The notes beneath the pieces were generated by a model. The model saw nothing but the letters and a program-made list of their open reading frames with translations. It did not search any database and had not been told where the DNA came from. A program made the position numbers and the translations under genes. From the NCBI RefSeq assembly GCF_003841465.1, contig NZ_REFZ01000005.1, positions 1 through 64,000 on the forward strand: a stretch of 64,000 nt of DNA. The letters run 5' to 3'. The stretch is from Natrarchaeobius oligotrophus (lineage in GTDB: Archaea; Halobacteriota; Halobacteria; Halobacteriales; Natrialbaceae). Each line of letters begins with the position of its first letter. The first letter of the stretch is position 1. Below, piece by piece: positions 36,409 to 43,281 of this stretch.

Positions 36409-39400
36409 CTACGTCGTCCGCAGGGCGTCGGTACTCGGTTCGTACACCTCGCCTTTCTGTTTGAGTTTCTCGATCTCGTGTTCGGCTTTCGACTGGTCCA
36501 TGCCGACTTCCTCGGCCCGCTCGAGGACGATGTCGACCGGCGCACCCTCGTCGTACTCCTCTTCGATGTCGGCGATGAGTCCTTTGAGGTTCTTGATCCG
36601 GTCGCGCTGGGACTTCGAAGTGCCCGCCTCGACGATGTCCGCGTCGAACTCGCCGGTTTCGGGATCGACGCCGATATCCTGCAGGCACGAGCGGACGATC
36701 TCGACGACGTGCTCGGCGTCGGACTGTTCGACCGTATCGGACAGGCGAATCCGAGCGCTCGCCTCCGAGAGCCGAACCAGCGCCTCGAGTTTTCGCGCCG
36801 TAACCGGAATCGGCGCGTCCTCGTCGGTCCCCTTCGAGCGCAGGTCGACGTAGAAATCACGGATGGTCTCGCGGGCCTCCTCGGTCATCCGCGGATGACA
36901 GTTCTGTTTCGCGAACGCGATGTACTTCCGCAGGAGGTCCGCGTCGATGTCGGGATCGACCGTCTCGGTCATCTCGTCGATCTCGTCCTGGCTCACGTCG
37001 AGCGAGGCCATCTGCTCACGCTGGGTCGTCAACTCGCCCGCGTAGTTGGTCGTCAAGATGTGTTCTGCGAGATTTCTGTCTTTCTCCTCGTCGGGCTGGT
37101 CGGTCACCGTAAAGATCAGGTCGAACCGCGAGATGAGTGCCGGCTCGAGGTCGATCTGCTCGCTGATCGGCTCGTAGTGGTCGAACCGGCCGTACTTCGG
37201 ATTGGCCGCCCCGAGCAGCGAACAGCGGGACTTCAGCGTCGCGTTGATGCCGGCCTTCGAGACCGAAATCTTCTGTTGTTCGAGGGCCTCGTGCATGGCG
37301 GAACGATCTTCAGAGTTGTGGACGACCATGCCGTTCGCGATGAAGTTGTGGGTCCCCTCTACCGTGAGGTCGTACACGTAGTCGAAGTCGTGGTCATCGT
37401 CCCGTCGAACGCTGACTATTTCGCTGGGTTCGACGTCACGGAGGCCCGGATTCGCTGGGTTAGTGGTTGCGGTACCGCCGTCTGCGGCAATCGAGGGCGT
37501 GCCACAGGGCACGAGCGTTCGGTCACCTGCCTCGAGACTCGAAGCATCCCGCTCGACAATCGATCCGTTCTGGTAGACGAAAAACGGGTGATCGGGAGTC
37601 GATCGGAGTCGCTCTCCGCTTTCAGTGGTAACGTCGATCAGCTCTGTCGGTGTTTCGTACTGGTGGACAGCAGTTACGGGCCGGTCGACGATCGCTCCGG
37701 TCTCAGTCATCGTTCGAACGGAGAAATCCACGTCCCGGATCGTCCGGCCGTTCTCGAGTTCTTCGATCGAACCGTCTGCTACCGCATCATGTGCTAATTC
37801 CCGGATTGGTTTGATTCCATTACCAGCATGTACTAATGTATCTCCAGTGACACACCGCATCTTATCCAGCTCGTCGACCGCCGCGATCCCCTGATCCGCG
37901 AGAACTAACGCGCCTGCCTCGAGGGTCCACTGCTGTCCGTCGCCGAAGTCGTCCCGGACAGCAGCGGCGGTAAGCCCCGCCGAGGACGAACCCTTCCCGG
38001 AGGTGTAGACGGATCGAGGTGCAATATTCTGGATATACCCTAGCATCTGAGAGTTGTGCGAGATAACACCGTTCGAGACGTAGTTGTGGGTTTCCTCGAC
38101 CTCGAGGTCGTACACCCAGTCGTCATCGGGTTCGAGCGTCTCCAGCGACGCAATTCGATCAGTACCAGCGGCGGCCGCAACCGTGATTCCGCCGTCAGGG
38201 CGGACACGTTCCGCCGAACGAGTGTGTGGGTCTATAGCCGGCGCAGCGACAGCAATCGCATCACCGATGTCGAGTTCCTCTGCACGGGTCGCTTGAAAGC
38301 CCCCAGCAGCATCGACGAACAGTGGATGCGATGGCGTCACCTCGAGTTCGCGGCCGCTCGAAGTTCGTATTCGATACATCTGTTCGGGCGCTTCTCGCTT
38401 CCACACTTTGATCGCACGCTGGGGAGCAATCGAACCGTCTTTCTGGAGAGACGGAACCTCGAGATCGACCTCGTCCCACCAGCCGTCATCGATCGGTTTC
38501 GGATCGTCGAGGTTCGACTCGACGAGCTCTCGAATCGGAACGGTTTTTCCGTCTGCGAGGGTGACCTTCGTGTCCCCGCGAACACACTTACCAGTACCCG
38601 GATCACCGATAAGGAGCATGTGCAGATCCCCGCGGATCCTCGAGCCGTCGGGCAACTGTTTCGTAACCCCCGAAAAGAGCTGGAAGATCATGGCGAGTTT
38701 CTCCTGTTCGTAGCCGTAGATCGAGGGGGCGATAGAGCCGACCATCCGCTCGTAGACGTCGTCCTGATTGGAGATCTCGTAGATCTTCTTTTTGTCCTCG
38801 TCGGTGATGTTCATGTCCTCGAACTGCTCTTCGTCGACTTCGACGGAGATCCCCTCCATGTAGAAATCGAAGACGGGAGATTTGTCCTGGCCGTCGCTCT
38901 GTTGCTCGAGGCGTAACACGCCGGTCGCGGAGACGTTGTCGCCGGGCGTGACCTCGCCGGTGATGTCGTCTTCGACGTGGACGTCGAGCGACTGTGGCGT
39001 CTCGCCGCCGCGAAGCCCCTCGGGACTTTCCTGAATGCGGAGTTTCTGGGAGTCGACGAACTCGGACTGGTCGAAGTTCACGCGAAACGGTCCCTGTCGT
39101 TCACAGCCCTGACACTCGTGGGGTTCCTGGAAGTTACCGCTGGACTGAGGGACGCGCGTGAGGGTGCCACAGAGCTGGCACTCGAAGGCGGCCTCCTCGA
39201 TTTTGGGACGGACGTCGGTCGCCTTGCGGACGATACCACGCACCTGAACCAGGGAGTTCATATCGCGTGCGCGAATCTCCCGGATTTCGGGCGACTCCGT
39301 CTCGGGGAGATTTCGAATGCGGACGTGCGCCTGACCGAGGCTGACGTCGATCGGGAGGTCGTAGAGTCGAAGCGCTTCTTCGGCGTAGCGCTGGAGCTGT

Positions 39401-39585
39401 TCCGGCTGGTTCAGAAAGTCGTCCGCCAGATCGGGATCGAAGCGGTAGAGGTCTTGCCAGTCGATCGAAAGCGAGCGTTGCTCGTTTGGATATCGCTGGG
39501 CAAGCTGTTTGATCGCGTTGTCGTAGTAGTTCCGGAAGAACTGCTCGAACGCATCGACGAGTTCAGAATTTCCCGCTTGCGCCAT
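36409..39585 (-). CDS. mcm: MCM replicative helicase precursor with two inteins
   Basis: 1058 codons. Removing two inteins of 178 and 180 residues leaves a normal 700-residue MCM. The N-terminal DNA-binding part includes zinc-finger cysteines (CQLCGT and CQGC). Walker A is GDPGTGK, with the first intein right after the lysine. Walker B is LVLADQGIAAVDELDKM, with the second intein just after the following Arg. SRFDLIFTV holds the arginine finger and a C-terminal winged helix ends the protein. MCM unwinds DNA as a hexamer, so both inteins must splice out before the ATPase is active. ATG 39585 follows a TATA box on the minus strand at 39611-39619 (CCATTTATAC). Confidence 0.97.
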   Translation of the reverse strand: MAQAGNSELVDAFEQFFRNYYDNAIKQLAQRYPNEQRSLSIDWQDLYRFDPDLADDFLNQPEQLQRYAEEALRLYDLPIDVSLGQAHVRIRNLPETESPEIREIRARDMNSLVQVRGIVRKATDVRPKIEEAAFECQLCGTLTRVPQSSGNFQEPHECQGCERQGPFRVNFDQSEFVDSQKLRIQESPEGLRGGETPQSLDVHVEDDITGEVTPGDNVSATGVLRLEQQSDGQDKSPVFDFYMEGISVEVDEEQFEDMNITDEDKKKIYEISNQDDVYERMVGSIAPSIYGYEQEKLAMIFQLFSGVTKQLPDGSRIRGDLHMLLIGDPGTGKCVRGDTKVTLADGKTVPIRELVESNLDDPKPIDDGWWDEVDLEVPSLQKDGSIAPQRAIKVWKREAPEQMYRIRTSSGRELEVTPSHPLFVDAAGGFQATRAEELDIGDAIAVAAPAIDPHTRSAERVRPDGGITVAAAAGTDRIASLETLEPDDDWVYDLEVEETHNYVSNGVISHNSQMLGYIQNIAPRSVYTSGKGSSSAGLTAAAVRDDFGDGQQWTLEAGALVLADQGIAAVDELDKMRCVTGDTLVHAGNGIKPIRELAHDAVADGSIEELENGRTIRDVDFSVRTMTETGAIVDRPVTAVHQYETPTELIDVTTESGERLRSTPDHPFFVYQNGSIVERDASSLEAGDRTLVPCGTPSIAADGGTATTNPANPGLRDVEPSEIVSVRRDDDHDFDYVYDLTVEGTHNFIANGMVVHNSEDRSAMHEALEQQKISVSKAGINATLKSRCSLLGAANPKYGRFDHYEPISEQIDLEPALISRFDLIFTVTDQPDEEKDRNLAEHILTTNYAGELTTQREQMASLDVSQDEIDEMTETVDPDIDADLLRKYIAFAKQNCHPRMTEEARETIRDFYVDLRSKGTDEDAPIPVTARKLEALVRLSEASARIRLSDTVEQSDAEHVVEIVRSCLQDIGVDPETGEFDADIVEAGTSKSQRDRIKNLKGLIADIEEEYDEGAPVDIVLERAEEVGMDQSKAEHEIEKLKQKGEVYEPSTDALRTT
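37315..37854 (-). mobile_element. MCM mini-intein 2, after DELDKMR
   Basis: 180 residues from Cys (CVTGDTLVHAGNG) to the C-terminal Asn (GMVVHN), followed by Ser of the extein (SEDRSAMHEALEQQ). Block B is RSTPDHPFFV. The C-terminal blocks are VYDLTVEGTHNFIANGMVVHN-like, with the terminal His-Asn. No LAGLIDADG motif and no room for a homing endonuclease, so it can splice but not home. Base use is visibly less GC-rich than the extein. The insertion is adjacent to Walker B, a highly conserved site that also hosts inteins in other archaeal MCMs. Confidence 0.92.
38053..38586 (-). mobile_element. MCM mini-intein 1, in Walker A
   Basis: 178 residues from Cys (CVRGDTKVTLADG) to Asn (GVISHN), then Ser of the extein (SQMLGYIQNIAP). 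It is inserted directly after the Walker A lysine, GDPGTGK. Block B is EVTPSHPLFV and block F begins VYDLEVEETHNY. It lacks endonuclease motifs, so it is a mini-intein. It shares only the general splicing blocks with intein 2, so the two are separate acquisitions or old copies. Confidence 0.92.
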
Positions 39586-40215: not shown

Positions 40216-41079
40216 GGATGAGAAACGTGTGCACACACCAGTCCGCTCGAGGACGATCGAACTCGTCCCGAGGGCGTTTCCGCGGTACGCCGTGTGAGAG
40301 AAAACCACTTTCAAGAAAACCCTCACGAGTGAGGCAGTGTGCCTTTCACGGTGAGTTCATAACTGCCGACTGGTCTCACGGCAACCTGTGCCTCTGACAC
40401 ACCATTCCAGTGGGACCACTTCTTGCGGGCCGCGCGTTCTCGGCTCTCCACCACCGAACTCTCCACCTCGAACCGAGACGGAAAGAGACGTCACCAGATC
40501 CGGTTACGAAACCGCCACCTCGAGTGCAAGCCGGGCGAGGTGGGACGGCACTACCGGCGACGGTAGACGTGTGGAGTACGAGGCGACCGGGACGAAGGAG
40601 CTGGCGTCGCTCACGGAGTTACTCGCGACGAACCGGATAGAACCGCCCGAAATTCGAACCACGTTTGAGAACTGCGCTTCGCGCAGAACCTCTCTCTGTC
40701 TCAATCCGGTCACTTTCCAGTAGCTGGCGCTCGCGAATGTGCTCGCAGTAGCAATATGGGATCTCCCGGCATTGAATTAGGCTGTTTTCACGGTGCAGTA
40801 CGGCGTAGATACAGAGGAAGGTGGCGCGGTACATCCAGACGCGTAGCGTACCCGGTTTCGGACGACCCTGCAGCGACGAGAACAGCGGTTGTCGACCGTG
40901 TTTATCTTGCTTATTGTGACGGATGATCTGGACGAACGTCGAGATCGTCTCGCACACGCGTTCGTTCGACGCGACGACTCGCTCAGCATCTGGTTTGTTC
41001 TTCAGCACTGTATTGAACAAGCAGGAATTCAAACAGTAGAGGCAGGTTGATTCGGACACCAACATGGGAAATATTAAAA
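40216..41079. other. Left part of the accessory island, no intact gene
   Basis: About 860 bases with no intact gene that I can support. The left half (to about 40720) has haloarchaeal GC, and one plus-strand frame after 40400 reads PFQWDHFLRAARSRLST and then meets a stop, suggesting a decayed coding sequence. The right half is AT-richer, and a minus-strand frame of about 154 codons (40619-41083) reads in part like a gene (listed separately). No inverted terminal repeats could be identified by eye. Confidence 0.35.
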
Positions 41080-41083
41080 ACAT
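40619..41083 (-). pseudogene. Possible remnant ORF in the island
   Basis: A 154-codon frame. Its middle (KPGTLRVWMYRATFLCIYAV) has codon third-position bias typical of real haloarchaeal coding DNA, but the ends do not, and no start with a promoter precedes it. I do not recognise a domain. It may be a relic of a mobile-element protein, or chance. Low confidence. Confidence 0.2.
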
Positions 41084-41092
41084 TTATGTGCC
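41080..41092 (+). promoter_or_regulatory. Promoter element of the exported-protein gene
   Basis: AACATTTATGTGC, the same 13 bases as the element at 40203-40215 in opposite orientation. The TATA core is about 40 bases before the ATG at 41131, so the transcript would carry a short leader. The surrounding 60 bases are strongly AT-rich. Confidence 0.45.
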
Positions 41093-41130
41093 CATATGAT
41101 AATTATCCAATTGGTATAGATTTCAATAAT

Positions 41131-41790
41131 ATGAGTCGTCGAAGAATAATATCGCCAAGTGCATCTGCCATCGCCGCTGGCGGGTTGTTTTCTGGCTCTG
41201 CACTCGCATCAGATAGTCCGGAAGAAGAACCCACACTTTCTGAGTTGTATAAGGCGGTCACAATCAACGATGGAAAAGCAAAGGTGAAAGCAAATACTAC
41301 ACACGAAGGAATCACCATCCGAGGACAGGACGGTACGGTAGCAGCTGAAATCACTCCCCAGTACCTTGTGGAGGAAATTAATAAAGCCATAGATGACGGT
41401 TATCTAAAAGCAAGGGAGAAGGCTGGAGAGATCATGTTCGAAACTACCAATAAAGGAAACCAGATGATCGAGAAATTCGAACAGAAAGCGTCCCGAAGTA
41501 CTACACAATCTTGTGGTGTTAGTAAGGTGGACGACGAGCATGTATATCTAAACAACACCGACACCAACGAGATCCAGTTTGGTCTGCAAATGGGGTCTGG
41601 GACGGGCGTGATCGCTGCCGCAATCGCTGGATATGCGGGTACTGGGATAGGTGCCGTAATTTTAGCCGTCGCTGCAGTCCTCGTCTCCTTAGGGGCCTCG
41701 CGTGTAGGCACGAGAAACCATGGGTGTGGTATCATAGTTGACGGTGAAGATGAATTCATAGAGCCGCAAGACTGCCTGGAACCATGCTGA
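41131..41790 (+). CDS. Tat-exported precursor with hydrophobic Gly/Ala-rich C-terminal domain; candidate archaeocin
   Basis: 219 residues. MSRRRIISPS plus a short hydrophobic stretch ending GSALA|SD is a Tat-type signal peptide with cleavage near residue 27. A polar, Lys/Glu-rich middle (30-125) follows. The C-terminal domain begins QSCGVSKVDDEHVYL, continues NNTDTNEIQFGL, then has a Gly/Ala/Val-rich amphipathic or membrane-active block at about 150-190 (AAAIAGYAGTGIGAVILAVA). It ends GCGIIVD and CLEPC. Cysteines at 128, 199, 215 and 219 could form two disulfides. Pre-pro-peptide layout plus Cys-bounded hydrophobic C-terminus recalls the halocin C8 precursor, though its sequence is different. 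The AT-rich codon use points to transfer. An antimicrobial role is inference; a secreted structural or pilus-like role is the alternative. Confidence 0.75.
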   Translation: MSRRRIISPSASAIAAGGLFSGSALASDSPEEEPTLSELYKAVTINDGKAKVKANTTHEGITIRGQDGTVAAEITPQYLVEEINKAIDDGYLKAREKAGEIMFETTNKGNQMIEKFEQKASRSTTQSCGVSKVDDEHVYLNNTDTNEIQFGLQMGSGTGVIAAAIAGYAGTGIGAVILAVAAVLVSLGASRVGTRNHGCGIIVDGEDEFIEPQDCLEPC

Positions 41791-41886
41791 AGGGATAGCA
41801 ATATACACTACATAGACACCAAAATGTCGTTATGATCTCTTCTGGAATTGTAACAATCTATATGACATCACCAGCATTTCGCCAGC

Positions 41887-42822
41887 ATGTCAAATGATAA
41901 AAGGGAGTTTCTCCAGAAACCGGAACGGCTGGATACGTCTTTTCGCGTAATAGCTGGTGCGTACGTGGCAGCGCTGATCACCCCGACACTGTTGCTCAGT
42001 ATCGTAGAGCAGTTCAGGTTGAGCAATGAATTACTCGTGATCGGTGTATTCGGAGCAATTGGAACAACCATAGCTGCTGGCGTAGCTTGGCAAGTCGCTC
42101 ACTTGGGAAAGATAGTTATCTTGCTCAACAGGAGTTGGATGAGCTGGCTACTTCCTCTGATAGGCATCGTACCGGTATTTGTATACTTTTCTGATGTGAT
42201 TCGGTATCCTGCGTATATAATCGTCAATCCCGAAGCCACAACTGTAGAGAGTCTCATCGGATTTCTCGGATTCATTTTTGGGCTAGCCACTGTATGCCTG
42301 GGAGAGTTGCTTGTCAGCATGGCCCGCAATCGAGTGGCGAACGCGATGATTGACGACAAAGCAATCGATATCGAGTGGAAGGCCGGTTGGACGTGGATCG
42401 ATCAATTCAAATTGCTGTCTGGAATGGTCGTTTGTACCAGTTTCTTCGTTGTGATGATTATCGGTTATTTCGGATGGGTTGAAGCCACTTTCTCCAGGGC
42501 CGTAATTGTTCCCGTCGGTATGTTACTCGTTGTACTAATCCTGATTGCTAACAATACATCCTCGAAGCGAACCTATCGTATCACGTCTGATGGACTAGAA
42601 CAGCGTGGATCAGTTCAGTCACGTCTGTTCACACCATGGGAAGACATTGACGGGTTCACCGTAACCAACCGCACAATTGTTCTCCACCGAAAAGGACTTC
42701 GGCCCAATATTCGATTCTCCCGGCGGGATGTCAGACTTGATGAACAAAAGATAATCACAAAGTTACAAAAATATACCAAGCAGCGGAATGCATCGCACAA
42801 CGCTGTTCAATTTGAAGATTGA
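41887..42822 (+). CDS. Six-TM protein with PH-like tail; candidate immunity protein
   Basis: 311 residues. Six predicted spans: about 20-41, 49-71, 87-105, 122-145, 177-198 and 206-224. A cytoplasmic beta-rich tail (KRTYRITSDGLEQRGSVQSR, then FTPWEDIDGFTVTNRTIVLH) resembles bacterial PH-type domains. It follows the exported-protein gene by 96 bases and has its own TATA-like ATCTATATG at 41856-41864, about 25 bases before the ATG. Polytopic membrane proteins beside bacteriocin genes commonly give self-protection, so immunity or export is the leading guess. Codon use is AT-rich like its partner. Confidence 0.75.
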   Translation: MSNDKREFLQKPERLDTSFRVIAGAYVAALITPTLLLSIVEQFRLSNELLVIGVFGAIGTTIAAGVAWQVAHLGKIVILLNRSWMSWLLPLIGIVPVFVYFSDVIRYPAYIIVNPEATTVESLIGFLGFIFGLATVCLGELLVSMARNRVANAMIDDKAIDIEWKAGWTWIDQFKLLSGMVVCTSFFVVMIIGYFGWVEATFSRAVIVPVGMLLVVLILIANNTSSKRTYRITSDGLEQRGSVQSRLFTPWEDIDGFTVTNRTIVLHRKGLRPNIRFSRRDVRLDEQKIITKLQKYTKQRNASHNAVQFED

Positions 42823-43178
42823 AGGAGCGAGGTGGCCTATCGGGCGACCTCACGGATCGTGTCAGCCGTGATCGTCGTCAGTAGATCGGGGGCTTCTCAA
42901 GTACCTCGGCCCAGAACGCGAGCGTCGTCTGGAACCACCCCTCACCGAGCGCTCGAACCATACCTCGTGACATCGAAACCATACACTTCCCAATTGTTTG
43001 TCAAGAATGGGCGAGAGACCGCACCGTCGGACGTACCCCCGTCGATAGCCGCGACTGATCGGTCCGGCTACTCGAGATCGTCCGACCTCGAGAAATCACC
43101 GGGAATCACCTCCCGAACGAGGCGGTGTCTGGACGGGGTTGTGCCGAACCGGTTTGATGGTCTGAGTAAAACTGCCGC
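42823..43178. other. Right part of the island
   Basis: About 350 bases between the membrane-protein gene and the palindrome. The only candidate gene is the 34-codon frame on the minus strand listed next. The remainder has short frames only. GC content rises again here, so the island boundary may lie inside this stretch or at the tRNA. Confidence 0.35.
42878..42982 (-). CDS. 34-codon Trp/Phe-containing ORF
   Basis: ATG at 42982 opens 34 codons with normal haloarchaeal codon bias from residue 8 on. The middle reads GEGWFQTTLAFWAEVLEKPP, an amphipathic segment with two Trp and two Phe, and the frame ends Tyr-stop. An AT-rich patch (ACAAACAATTGGG on the minus strand) lies just upstream. It could be a membrane-active microprotein or the tail of a lost gene. 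No domain recognised. Confidence 0.3.
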   Translation of the reverse strand: MVSMSRGMVRALGEGWFQTTLAFWAEVLEKPPIY

Positions 43179-43200
43179 ATAAGGGTTGCGCAACCCTTAT
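43179..43200. repeat. Perfect 22-base palindrome beside tRNA-Pro
   Basis: ATAAGGGTTGC followed directly by its reverse complement GCAACCCTTAT, with no loop or mismatch, eight bases beyond the 3' end of the tRNA-Pro gene. On the minus strand it could form a hairpin that ends the tRNA transcript. A perfect no-spacer palindrome is also the form of a dimeric repressor or recombinase site at the island boundary. Confidence 0.6.
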
Positions 43201-43208
43201 TTTCGCTA

Positions 43209-43281
43209 TGGGATCGCCCGGATTTGAACCGGGGTCACGGGCACCCAAGGCCCGAAGTATACCAGGCTAACCCACGATCCC
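43209..43281 (-). tRNA. tRNA-Pro (TGG)
   Basis: Minus-strand cloverleaf. The acceptor arms are GGGATCG and CGATCCC, the anticodon stem is CGGGC/GCCCG around loop CTTGGGT (anticodon TGG), and the T arm has GGTTCAAATCC. The discriminator is A. CCA is not encoded. A TATA-like TTTATGAC on the minus strand at about 43303-43311 is its promoter. Its 3' end borders the AT-rich island, a typical integration position for archaeal elements. Confidence 0.93.

What the first reader, a model, noticed from the sequence alone, without database searches (positions are those of the whole stretch)
41131..42822. Candidate archaeocin operon: exported Cys-bounded hydrophobic peptide precursor plus six-TM PH-tailed membrane protein
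Seen: a Tat-like signal peptide, a polar propeptide, a C-terminal domain with four Cys and a 40-residue Gly/Ala/Val block, then a polytopic membrane protein with its own TATA box, all in AT-rich DNA beside a tRNA. Established: halocin C8 is a Tat-exported precursor whose C-terminal Cys-rich peptide kills haloarchaea. The sequence here is not C8-like, but the layout C-G-x2-K, V-Y-L, Gly/Ala block, G-C-G-I recalls, from memory, small secreted proteins of Gram-positive bacteria. Inference: a new archaeal antimicrobial peptide with immunity or export protein.
Basis: partly seen in the sequence, partly recalled or inferred. Interest (0 to 1): 0.8.

Follow-up and report, generated by a model that had tools for sequence, protein, structure and literature searches.

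The report
Haloarchaeal secreted toxin-immunity gene pair
Two neighbouring genes in a salt-loving archaeon most likely make a secreted membrane-damaging peptide and the membrane protein that protects its maker; they belong to a previously unnamed family, found in about one in twenty haloarchaeal species, whose members sit beside at least three kinds of small membrane protein.

Summary
Window 41131-41790 (+) encodes a 219-aa precursor: twin-arginine signal, folded prodomain (36-122), and a C-terminal domain with four Cys (128, 199, 215, 219) around a Gly/Ala/Val/Ile/Leu-rich block. Window 41887-42822 (+) encodes a six-TM protein with a PH-fold tail. Both lie in AT-rich accessory DNA (46-49% GC against about 65%), in a variable site beside tRNA-Pro that holds other genes in two same-genus genomes.

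The precursor belongs to a coherent haloarchaeal family with strong matches in 20 of 391 genomes and no Pfam, NCBIfam or PDB family. Homologues sit within 500 bp of a small multi-TM gene in 27 of 32 loci, against 30 of 110 control genes (p about 1e-8). The partners are of at least three dissimilar kinds: 2-TM, 3-4-TM, and 6-TM with PH. The 6-TM-PH partner is tied to one supported precursor clade (100/99), marked by an extra C-terminal Cys pair. One cell can hold several pairs, precursors are sometimes broken, and orphan partners exist. This is how bacteriocin and immunity genes behave.

It is not halocin C8 (only the Tat signal aligns) and only resembles geobacillin-26 in layout. No activity has been shown. 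New family of a known kind.

The parts
41131..41790 (+). P1: 219-aa exported toxin precursor. Residues 1-27 RR (Tat) signal with A-x-A site; 36-122 folded prodomain; 128-219 C-terminal domain with Cys 128/199/215/219 around a G/A/V/I/L-rich block
41512..41787 (+). Proposed mature toxin domain (residues 128-219): Cys, V-Y-L, hydrophobic helices 142-153, 158-166, 174-195, G-C-G-I, Q-x-C-x3-C tail
   Evidence: alignment and AlphaFold2 model; the cleavage point is inferred
41858..41864 (+). CTATATG, candidate TATA box for P2, 29 bases upstream of its ATG
   Evidence: position only, not tested
41887..42822 (+). P2: 311-aa six-TM membrane protein with C-terminal PH-fold tail (228-301); proposed immunity protein
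   Evidence: next to precursors of the same clade in six other loci
40239..43206 (.). Accessory insert, AT-rich over the gene pair, between a conserved wHTH gene and tRNA-Pro; replaced by other genes in same-genus genomes G002 and G003
43209..43281 (-). tRNA-Pro (tgg) bordering the variable site
   Evidence: same order of genes in L215 and L217

Best explanation
A two-gene toxin-immunity pair of a new haloarchaeal bacteriocin (archaeocin) family. P1 is folded and exported by the Tat pathway as an inactive precursor. Outside the cell its N-terminal prodomain is removed or displaced, plausibly by a secreted subtilisin-like protease. This frees a C-terminal peptide of about 90 residues whose hydrophobic helices are held between cysteines (C128-C199, and C215-C219 in this clade). 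The peptide inserts into and damages the membrane of related haloarchaea. P2, six TM helices with a PH-fold tail, stays in the producer's membrane and blocks the peptide. Shown by sequence: the signal, the domain layout, the family, the linkage, the partner diversity and the accessory location. Inferred: proteolytic activation, disulfides, membrane killing, and immunity by P2.
For: Family of P1 homologues in haloarchaea (E 1e-13 or better in 20 of 391 genomes, further ones to about 1e-6). RR, the prodomain N and G, the N-x-G-C-G motif and a near-terminal Q are conserved. P1 lies within 500 bp of a small gene with at least 2 TM in 27 of 32 loci, 21 of them downstream on the same strand, against 30 of 110 control genes (Fisher p 1.2e-8). 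Partners are of at least three kinds: 2-TM (60-69 aa), 3-4-TM (about 118-161 aa) and 6-TM-PH. The 6-TM-PH partner is tied to one supported clade (100/99); partner types cluster on the tree (6 changes, 0 of 200 shuffles as low). All seven 6-TM-PH-linked precursors end in an extra Cys pair, which no other aligned precursor has. The Cys at 128 and 199 are both present in 17 and both absent in 3 of 23 rows. One genome can carry several P1s with different partners (window genome, G149). Broken P1 beside an intact partner: in-frame TGA in G042, damaged reading frame in the Natrinema versiforme plasmid; close P2 relatives without P1. Variable insertion site. The genome has five S8-family protease matches, and published halolysins activate a haloarchaeal precursor (PMC12893001).
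Against: No experimental activity for any member. The control rate for a nearby small membrane gene is not low (27%), and genes and TM segments were called by simple scoring. P2 belongs to a broad haloarchaeal family (151 of 381 genomes at E 1e-5 or better), most without a detected precursor, so P2-like proteins have other roles too. In one pair (L064) the 6-TM gene lies about 540 bp upstream, and five of 32 loci have no partner within 500 bp. The mature domain has no detectable homology to a proven toxin. The P1 model is only moderate (mean pLDDT 70; hydrophobic part about 60-70).
Confidence: 0.72

Rival explanations
1. P1 is a secreted antimicrobial precursor, but P2 is mainly an export or maturation factor rather than immunity; the PH tail couples it to release of the peptide.
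For: Deleting the PH-domain proteins DdE and DdF blocks export of enterocin DD14 and leaves it toxic inside the producer (PMC8657885). P2 is polytopic with a PH fold.
Against: P1 has its own Tat signal, unlike leaderless bacteriocins. Homologous precursors manage with 2-TM or 3-4-TM partners, which would not be expected of a shared export machine. Orphan P2 relatives exist.
Confidence: 0.12
2. P1 is a cell-surface or signalling protein (surface structure, mating or biofilm factor) anchored by its C-terminal hydrophobic segment, and the membrane partners are assembly or receptor proteins.
For: One long hydrophobic segment could anchor the protein. No activity is shown for the family.
Against: Patchy accessory distribution, exchange of dissimilar partners, disrupted copies and several diverged copies per genome do not suit a structural role. 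RR plus A-x-A signal, with no lipobox or prepilin motif seen (inspection of the alignment).
Confidence: 0.1
3. P1 is an archaeal branch of the geobacillin-26 class III bacteriocin family, acting as a whole secreted protein without proteolytic activation.
For: Same layout: signal, polar region, C-terminal hydrophobic G/A block, and a small downstream ORF at three Geo26-family loci (49 and 54 aa with 2 TM; 131 aa with at least one TM). Two haloarchaeal members hit NF035925 weakly over the same region. Recombinant Ali24, without its signal peptide but otherwise whole, is active (PMC13176240).
Against: Scores are far below the 40-bit cut-off (10.9 and 13.3). The same model hits unrelated stretches of haloarchaeal and control genomes at similar E-values. 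Profile-profile E 0.033, probability 1.5%.
Confidence: 0.15

Closest known systems
Halocin C8 precursor family (NCBIfam TIGR04449)
   Same: Haloarchaeal, RR signal, polar prodomain, C-terminal Cys- and Gly/Ala-rich hydrophobic peptide
   Different: Only the Tat signal aligns between profiles; no TIGR04449 match for P1; C8 peptides have many more Cys and their prodomain is unrelated in sequence
Geobacillin-26 class III bacteriocins (NF035925; Geo26, Ali24)
   Same: Secreted protein of about 235-245 aa with a C-terminal hydrophobic segment and a small ORF downstream, membrane-spanning where checked
   Different: Sec rather than Tat signal, bacterial, no significant sequence similarity, no GCG motif
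PH-domain proteins of leaderless bacteriocin clusters (DdE/DdF of enterocin DD14)
   Same: Protein with a PH domain encoded in the cluster of a membrane-active peptide (PMC8657885)
   Different: Shown there to act in export of a leaderless peptide; P2 accompanies a precursor with its own signal. No sequence homology was tested
HapP (HFX_0892), halolysin-activated antagonistic precursor of Haloferax mediterranei
   Same: Secreted haloarchaeal precursor activated by S8 proteases (PMC12893001)

Membership tests
Halocin C8 (TIGR04449) | Match to the C8 domain model over its 24-bit cut-off | tested here: not met
   No match listed at E<=1; hhalign aligns only the Tat signal
Halocin C8 (TIGR04449) | Tat signal plus C-terminal Cys-bounded hydrophobic peptide | tested here: met
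Geobacillin-26 family (NF035925) | Score over the 40-bit cut-off | tested here: not met
   10.9 bits; best family member 13.3 bits
Geobacillin-26 family (NF035925) | Profile-profile homology of the C-terminal domain | tested here: inconclusive
   E 0.033, probability 1.5%, with only three Geo26 sequences
Bacteriocin-immunity gene pair | Exported precursor linked to a membrane protein in many genomes | tested here: met
   27 of 32 loci against 30 of 110 controls
Bacteriocin-immunity gene pair | Partner type follows precursor type, with partner diversity | tested here: met
   Tree with 6 changes, 0 of 200 shuffles as low
Bacteriocin-immunity gene pair | Killing by the product and protection by the partner | not testable with these tools
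   -
PH-fold membrane proteins | PH-superfold domain behind transmembrane helices | tested here: met
   AlphaFold2 and Foldseek; no Pfam PH model matches by sequence
Halocin H4 | Sequence homology to HalH4 | not tested
   The HalH4 sequence could not be reached

The most novel reading that the evidence does not exclude
A large, unnamed family of Tat-exported haloarchaeal bacteriocins in which one conserved precursor design is combined with at least three unrelated classes of membrane immunity protein, and which has a convergent or distantly related counterpart in the geobacillin-26 bacteriocins of Gram-positive bacteria; the precursor is kept inactive by a winged-helix-like prodomain.
Probability: 0.35. 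Interest if true: 0.75.

Novelty: new variant of a known kind. Interest (0 to 1): 0.62.

Why it matters
Few archaeal antimicrobial peptides are known at sequence level, and dedicated immunity proteins for halocins are hardly documented (own knowledge). A family in about 5% of haloarchaeal species, with identifiable partner genes of several kinds, gives a direct list of toxin and immunity candidates to test, and a way to ask whether archaea and Gram-positive bacteria reached the same weapon design by descent or by convergence.

Tried and rejected
tblastn in plasmids found only chance-level hits with P1 itself, and Natrinema plasmids with its homologues; phages gave nothing. Pfam, NCBIfam and PDB gave no family. 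The weak geobacillin-26 hit was checked with a control and found unspecific. Relation to C8 was tested and rejected. Distant P2-like genes 2-3 kb from two C8 genes (L145, L147) are separated from them by other genes and were not used as evidence. That the C. difficile Geo26 neighbour (131 aa, L112) has a PH-like tail is my reading only; hhalign did not support it, nor relatedness of the bacterial and archaeal 2-TM proteins. No tRNA-derived attachment repeat was found at the site. The upstream stretch 40230-41125 matched no plasmid. HalH4 could not be retrieved. The 2019 mBio survey of archaeal antimicrobial peptides and toxins that I know of (doi 10.1128/mBio.00715-19) is not held, so part of this family may have been listed there.

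Full report
WHAT IS THERE. The two ORFs are real and at the stated coordinates. P1 (41131-41790, +, 219 aa) begins MSRRRIIS...SALA, an RR-type signal. P2 (41887-42822, +, 311 aa) follows after 96 bp, with CTATATG 29 bases before its ATG. The pair lies in DNA of 46-49% GC, while the rest of the window is 58-72%, next to tRNA-Pro. In two genomes of the same genus the flanks are conserved in order: MCM, then a wHTH gene or its trace, then a variable stretch, tRNA-Pro, a small membrane protein and a helicase. The variable stretch holds other genes there. The pair is therefore accessory.

STRUCTURE. AlphaFold2 with 21 natural sequences gives P1 a disordered signal region, a fairly confident prodomain (residues 36-122, block means 71-92) and a C-terminal domain with helices 142-153, 158-166 and 174-195 and flanking strands. 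Confidence in the hydrophobic part is low to moderate. The prodomain weakly resembles winged-helix proteins (AspA, F93; E 0.4, prob 0.93; the same region is hit by sequence at E 0.17). P2 is modelled with six membrane helices and a PH-type module; its Foldseek matches are PH-superfold domains.

FAMILY. A profile from five sequences found strong matches (E about 1e-13 or better) in 20 of 391 haloarchaeal genomes, and further diverged members. In a sample of 295 genomes of the phylum all strong matches were again in the window's own order. The alignment shows RR near the start, an A-x-A region, a prodomain with invariant N84 and nearly invariant G90, an aromatic/hydrophobic-D-D/N strand, a hydrophobic G/A block, N-x-G-C-G-V/I-x-I/V and a near-terminal Q. 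The Cys before the block and the Cys in GCG are both present in 17 of 23 rows and both absent in 3, which suggests a disulfide across the block; three rows have the first alone.

PARTNERS. In 27 of 32 loci a small gene with at least two predicted TM segments lies within 500 bp of P1, 21 of them downstream on the same strand. Among soluble control genes in the same loci the figure is 30 of 110 (Fisher p 1.2e-8, or 1.4e-7 after removal of near-copies). Partners are 2-TM proteins of 60-69 aa, 3-4-TM proteins of about 118-161 aa, and the 6-TM-PH protein. The 6-TM-PH partner accompanies P1 in the window, G042, G344, G336, G062, G149 and Natrinema versiforme pNVE414. These seven precursors alone carry the extra C-terminal Cys pair. 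On a maximum-likelihood tree the 6-TM-PH-linked rows fall in one set of seven (100/99), of which one member has no partner; the partner labels need 6 changes, a number that none of 200 shuffles reached. The window's genome has a second P1 at G000:C1:433117-433791 with a divergent 3-TM gene.

DECAY AND ORPHANS. The G042 precursor has an in-frame TGA. The Natrinema versiforme plasmid copy has a damaged N-terminal reading frame, while its 6-TM-PH partner is intact. Close P2 relatives occur without P1. An intact partner outliving its precursor is expected of immunity genes, but P2-like proteins as a broad family (151 of 381 genomes) must also have other roles.

MECHANISM. The best reading is a Tat-exported precursor, activated outside the cell, whose C-terminal hydrophobic peptide damages membranes, with P2 as immunity protein. 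The genome has five S8 protease matches, and S8 halolysins activate a secreted haloarchaeal antagonistic precursor (PMC12893001). Activation, disulfides, killing and immunity are inferred.

KNOWN SYSTEMS. It is not a halocin C8: only the Tat signals align, although that family is common in the same group and present in this genome. It resembles geobacillin-26 bacteriocins in layout, down to small ORFs downstream at three Geo26-family loci, one of them unannotated beside the characterised Ali24 (PMC13176240). But the sequence evidence (10.9 bits against a cut-off of 40; hhalign E 0.033) does not establish descent, and the weak model hits are unspecific. PH-domain proteins are known in leaderless bacteriocin clusters, where they act in export (PMC8657885).

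VERDICT. Observation confirmed; the interpretation of an antimicrobial precursor with immunity partner is well supported by comparative genomics but untested by experiment. New family of a known kind.

Noticed in passing
G000:C24:24000-24960 (L161 4319-5260): The same genome encodes a halocin C8-domain precursor (36.6 bits, over the TIGR04449 cut-off), preceded by a 204-aa protein with 4 predicted TM and a weak HTH match.
   Followed up: partly
window 36409-39585 (-): The 1058-aa MCM helicase frame carries what look like two inteins (splice-like blocks CVRGDTKV... and CVTGDTLV...); the same-genus genome G002 has an 882-aa version, so intein content seems to vary.
   Followed up: no
P1 residues 72-122 (window 41344-41496): The prodomain of an exported protein resembles a winged helix (AspA, F93) by weak sequence and fold matches; its role is unexplained.
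   Followed up: partly
L098 30951-31100 (-): An unannotated 49-aa two-TM ORF lies downstream of the bacteriocin gene Ali24 on the Alicyclobacillus acidoterrestris plasmid, a candidate immunity gene; a 54-aa counterpart exists in A. fastidiosus (L111 3272-3436).
   Followed up: partly
L024 818-2371 (Natrinema versiforme pNVE414): Damaged precursor beside an intact 6-TM-PH gene, with a transposase-like ORF upstream: an apparent immunity-only remnant.
   Followed up: partly
L081 2906-4420: In G195 the P1-like C-terminus lies in one open frame with a long upstream stretch that overlaps a predicted permease ORF, possibly a degenerate or fused copy.
   Followed up: no
window 43179-43200: A perfect 22-bp palindrome just downstream of tRNA-Pro, possibly a terminator.
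   Followed up: no
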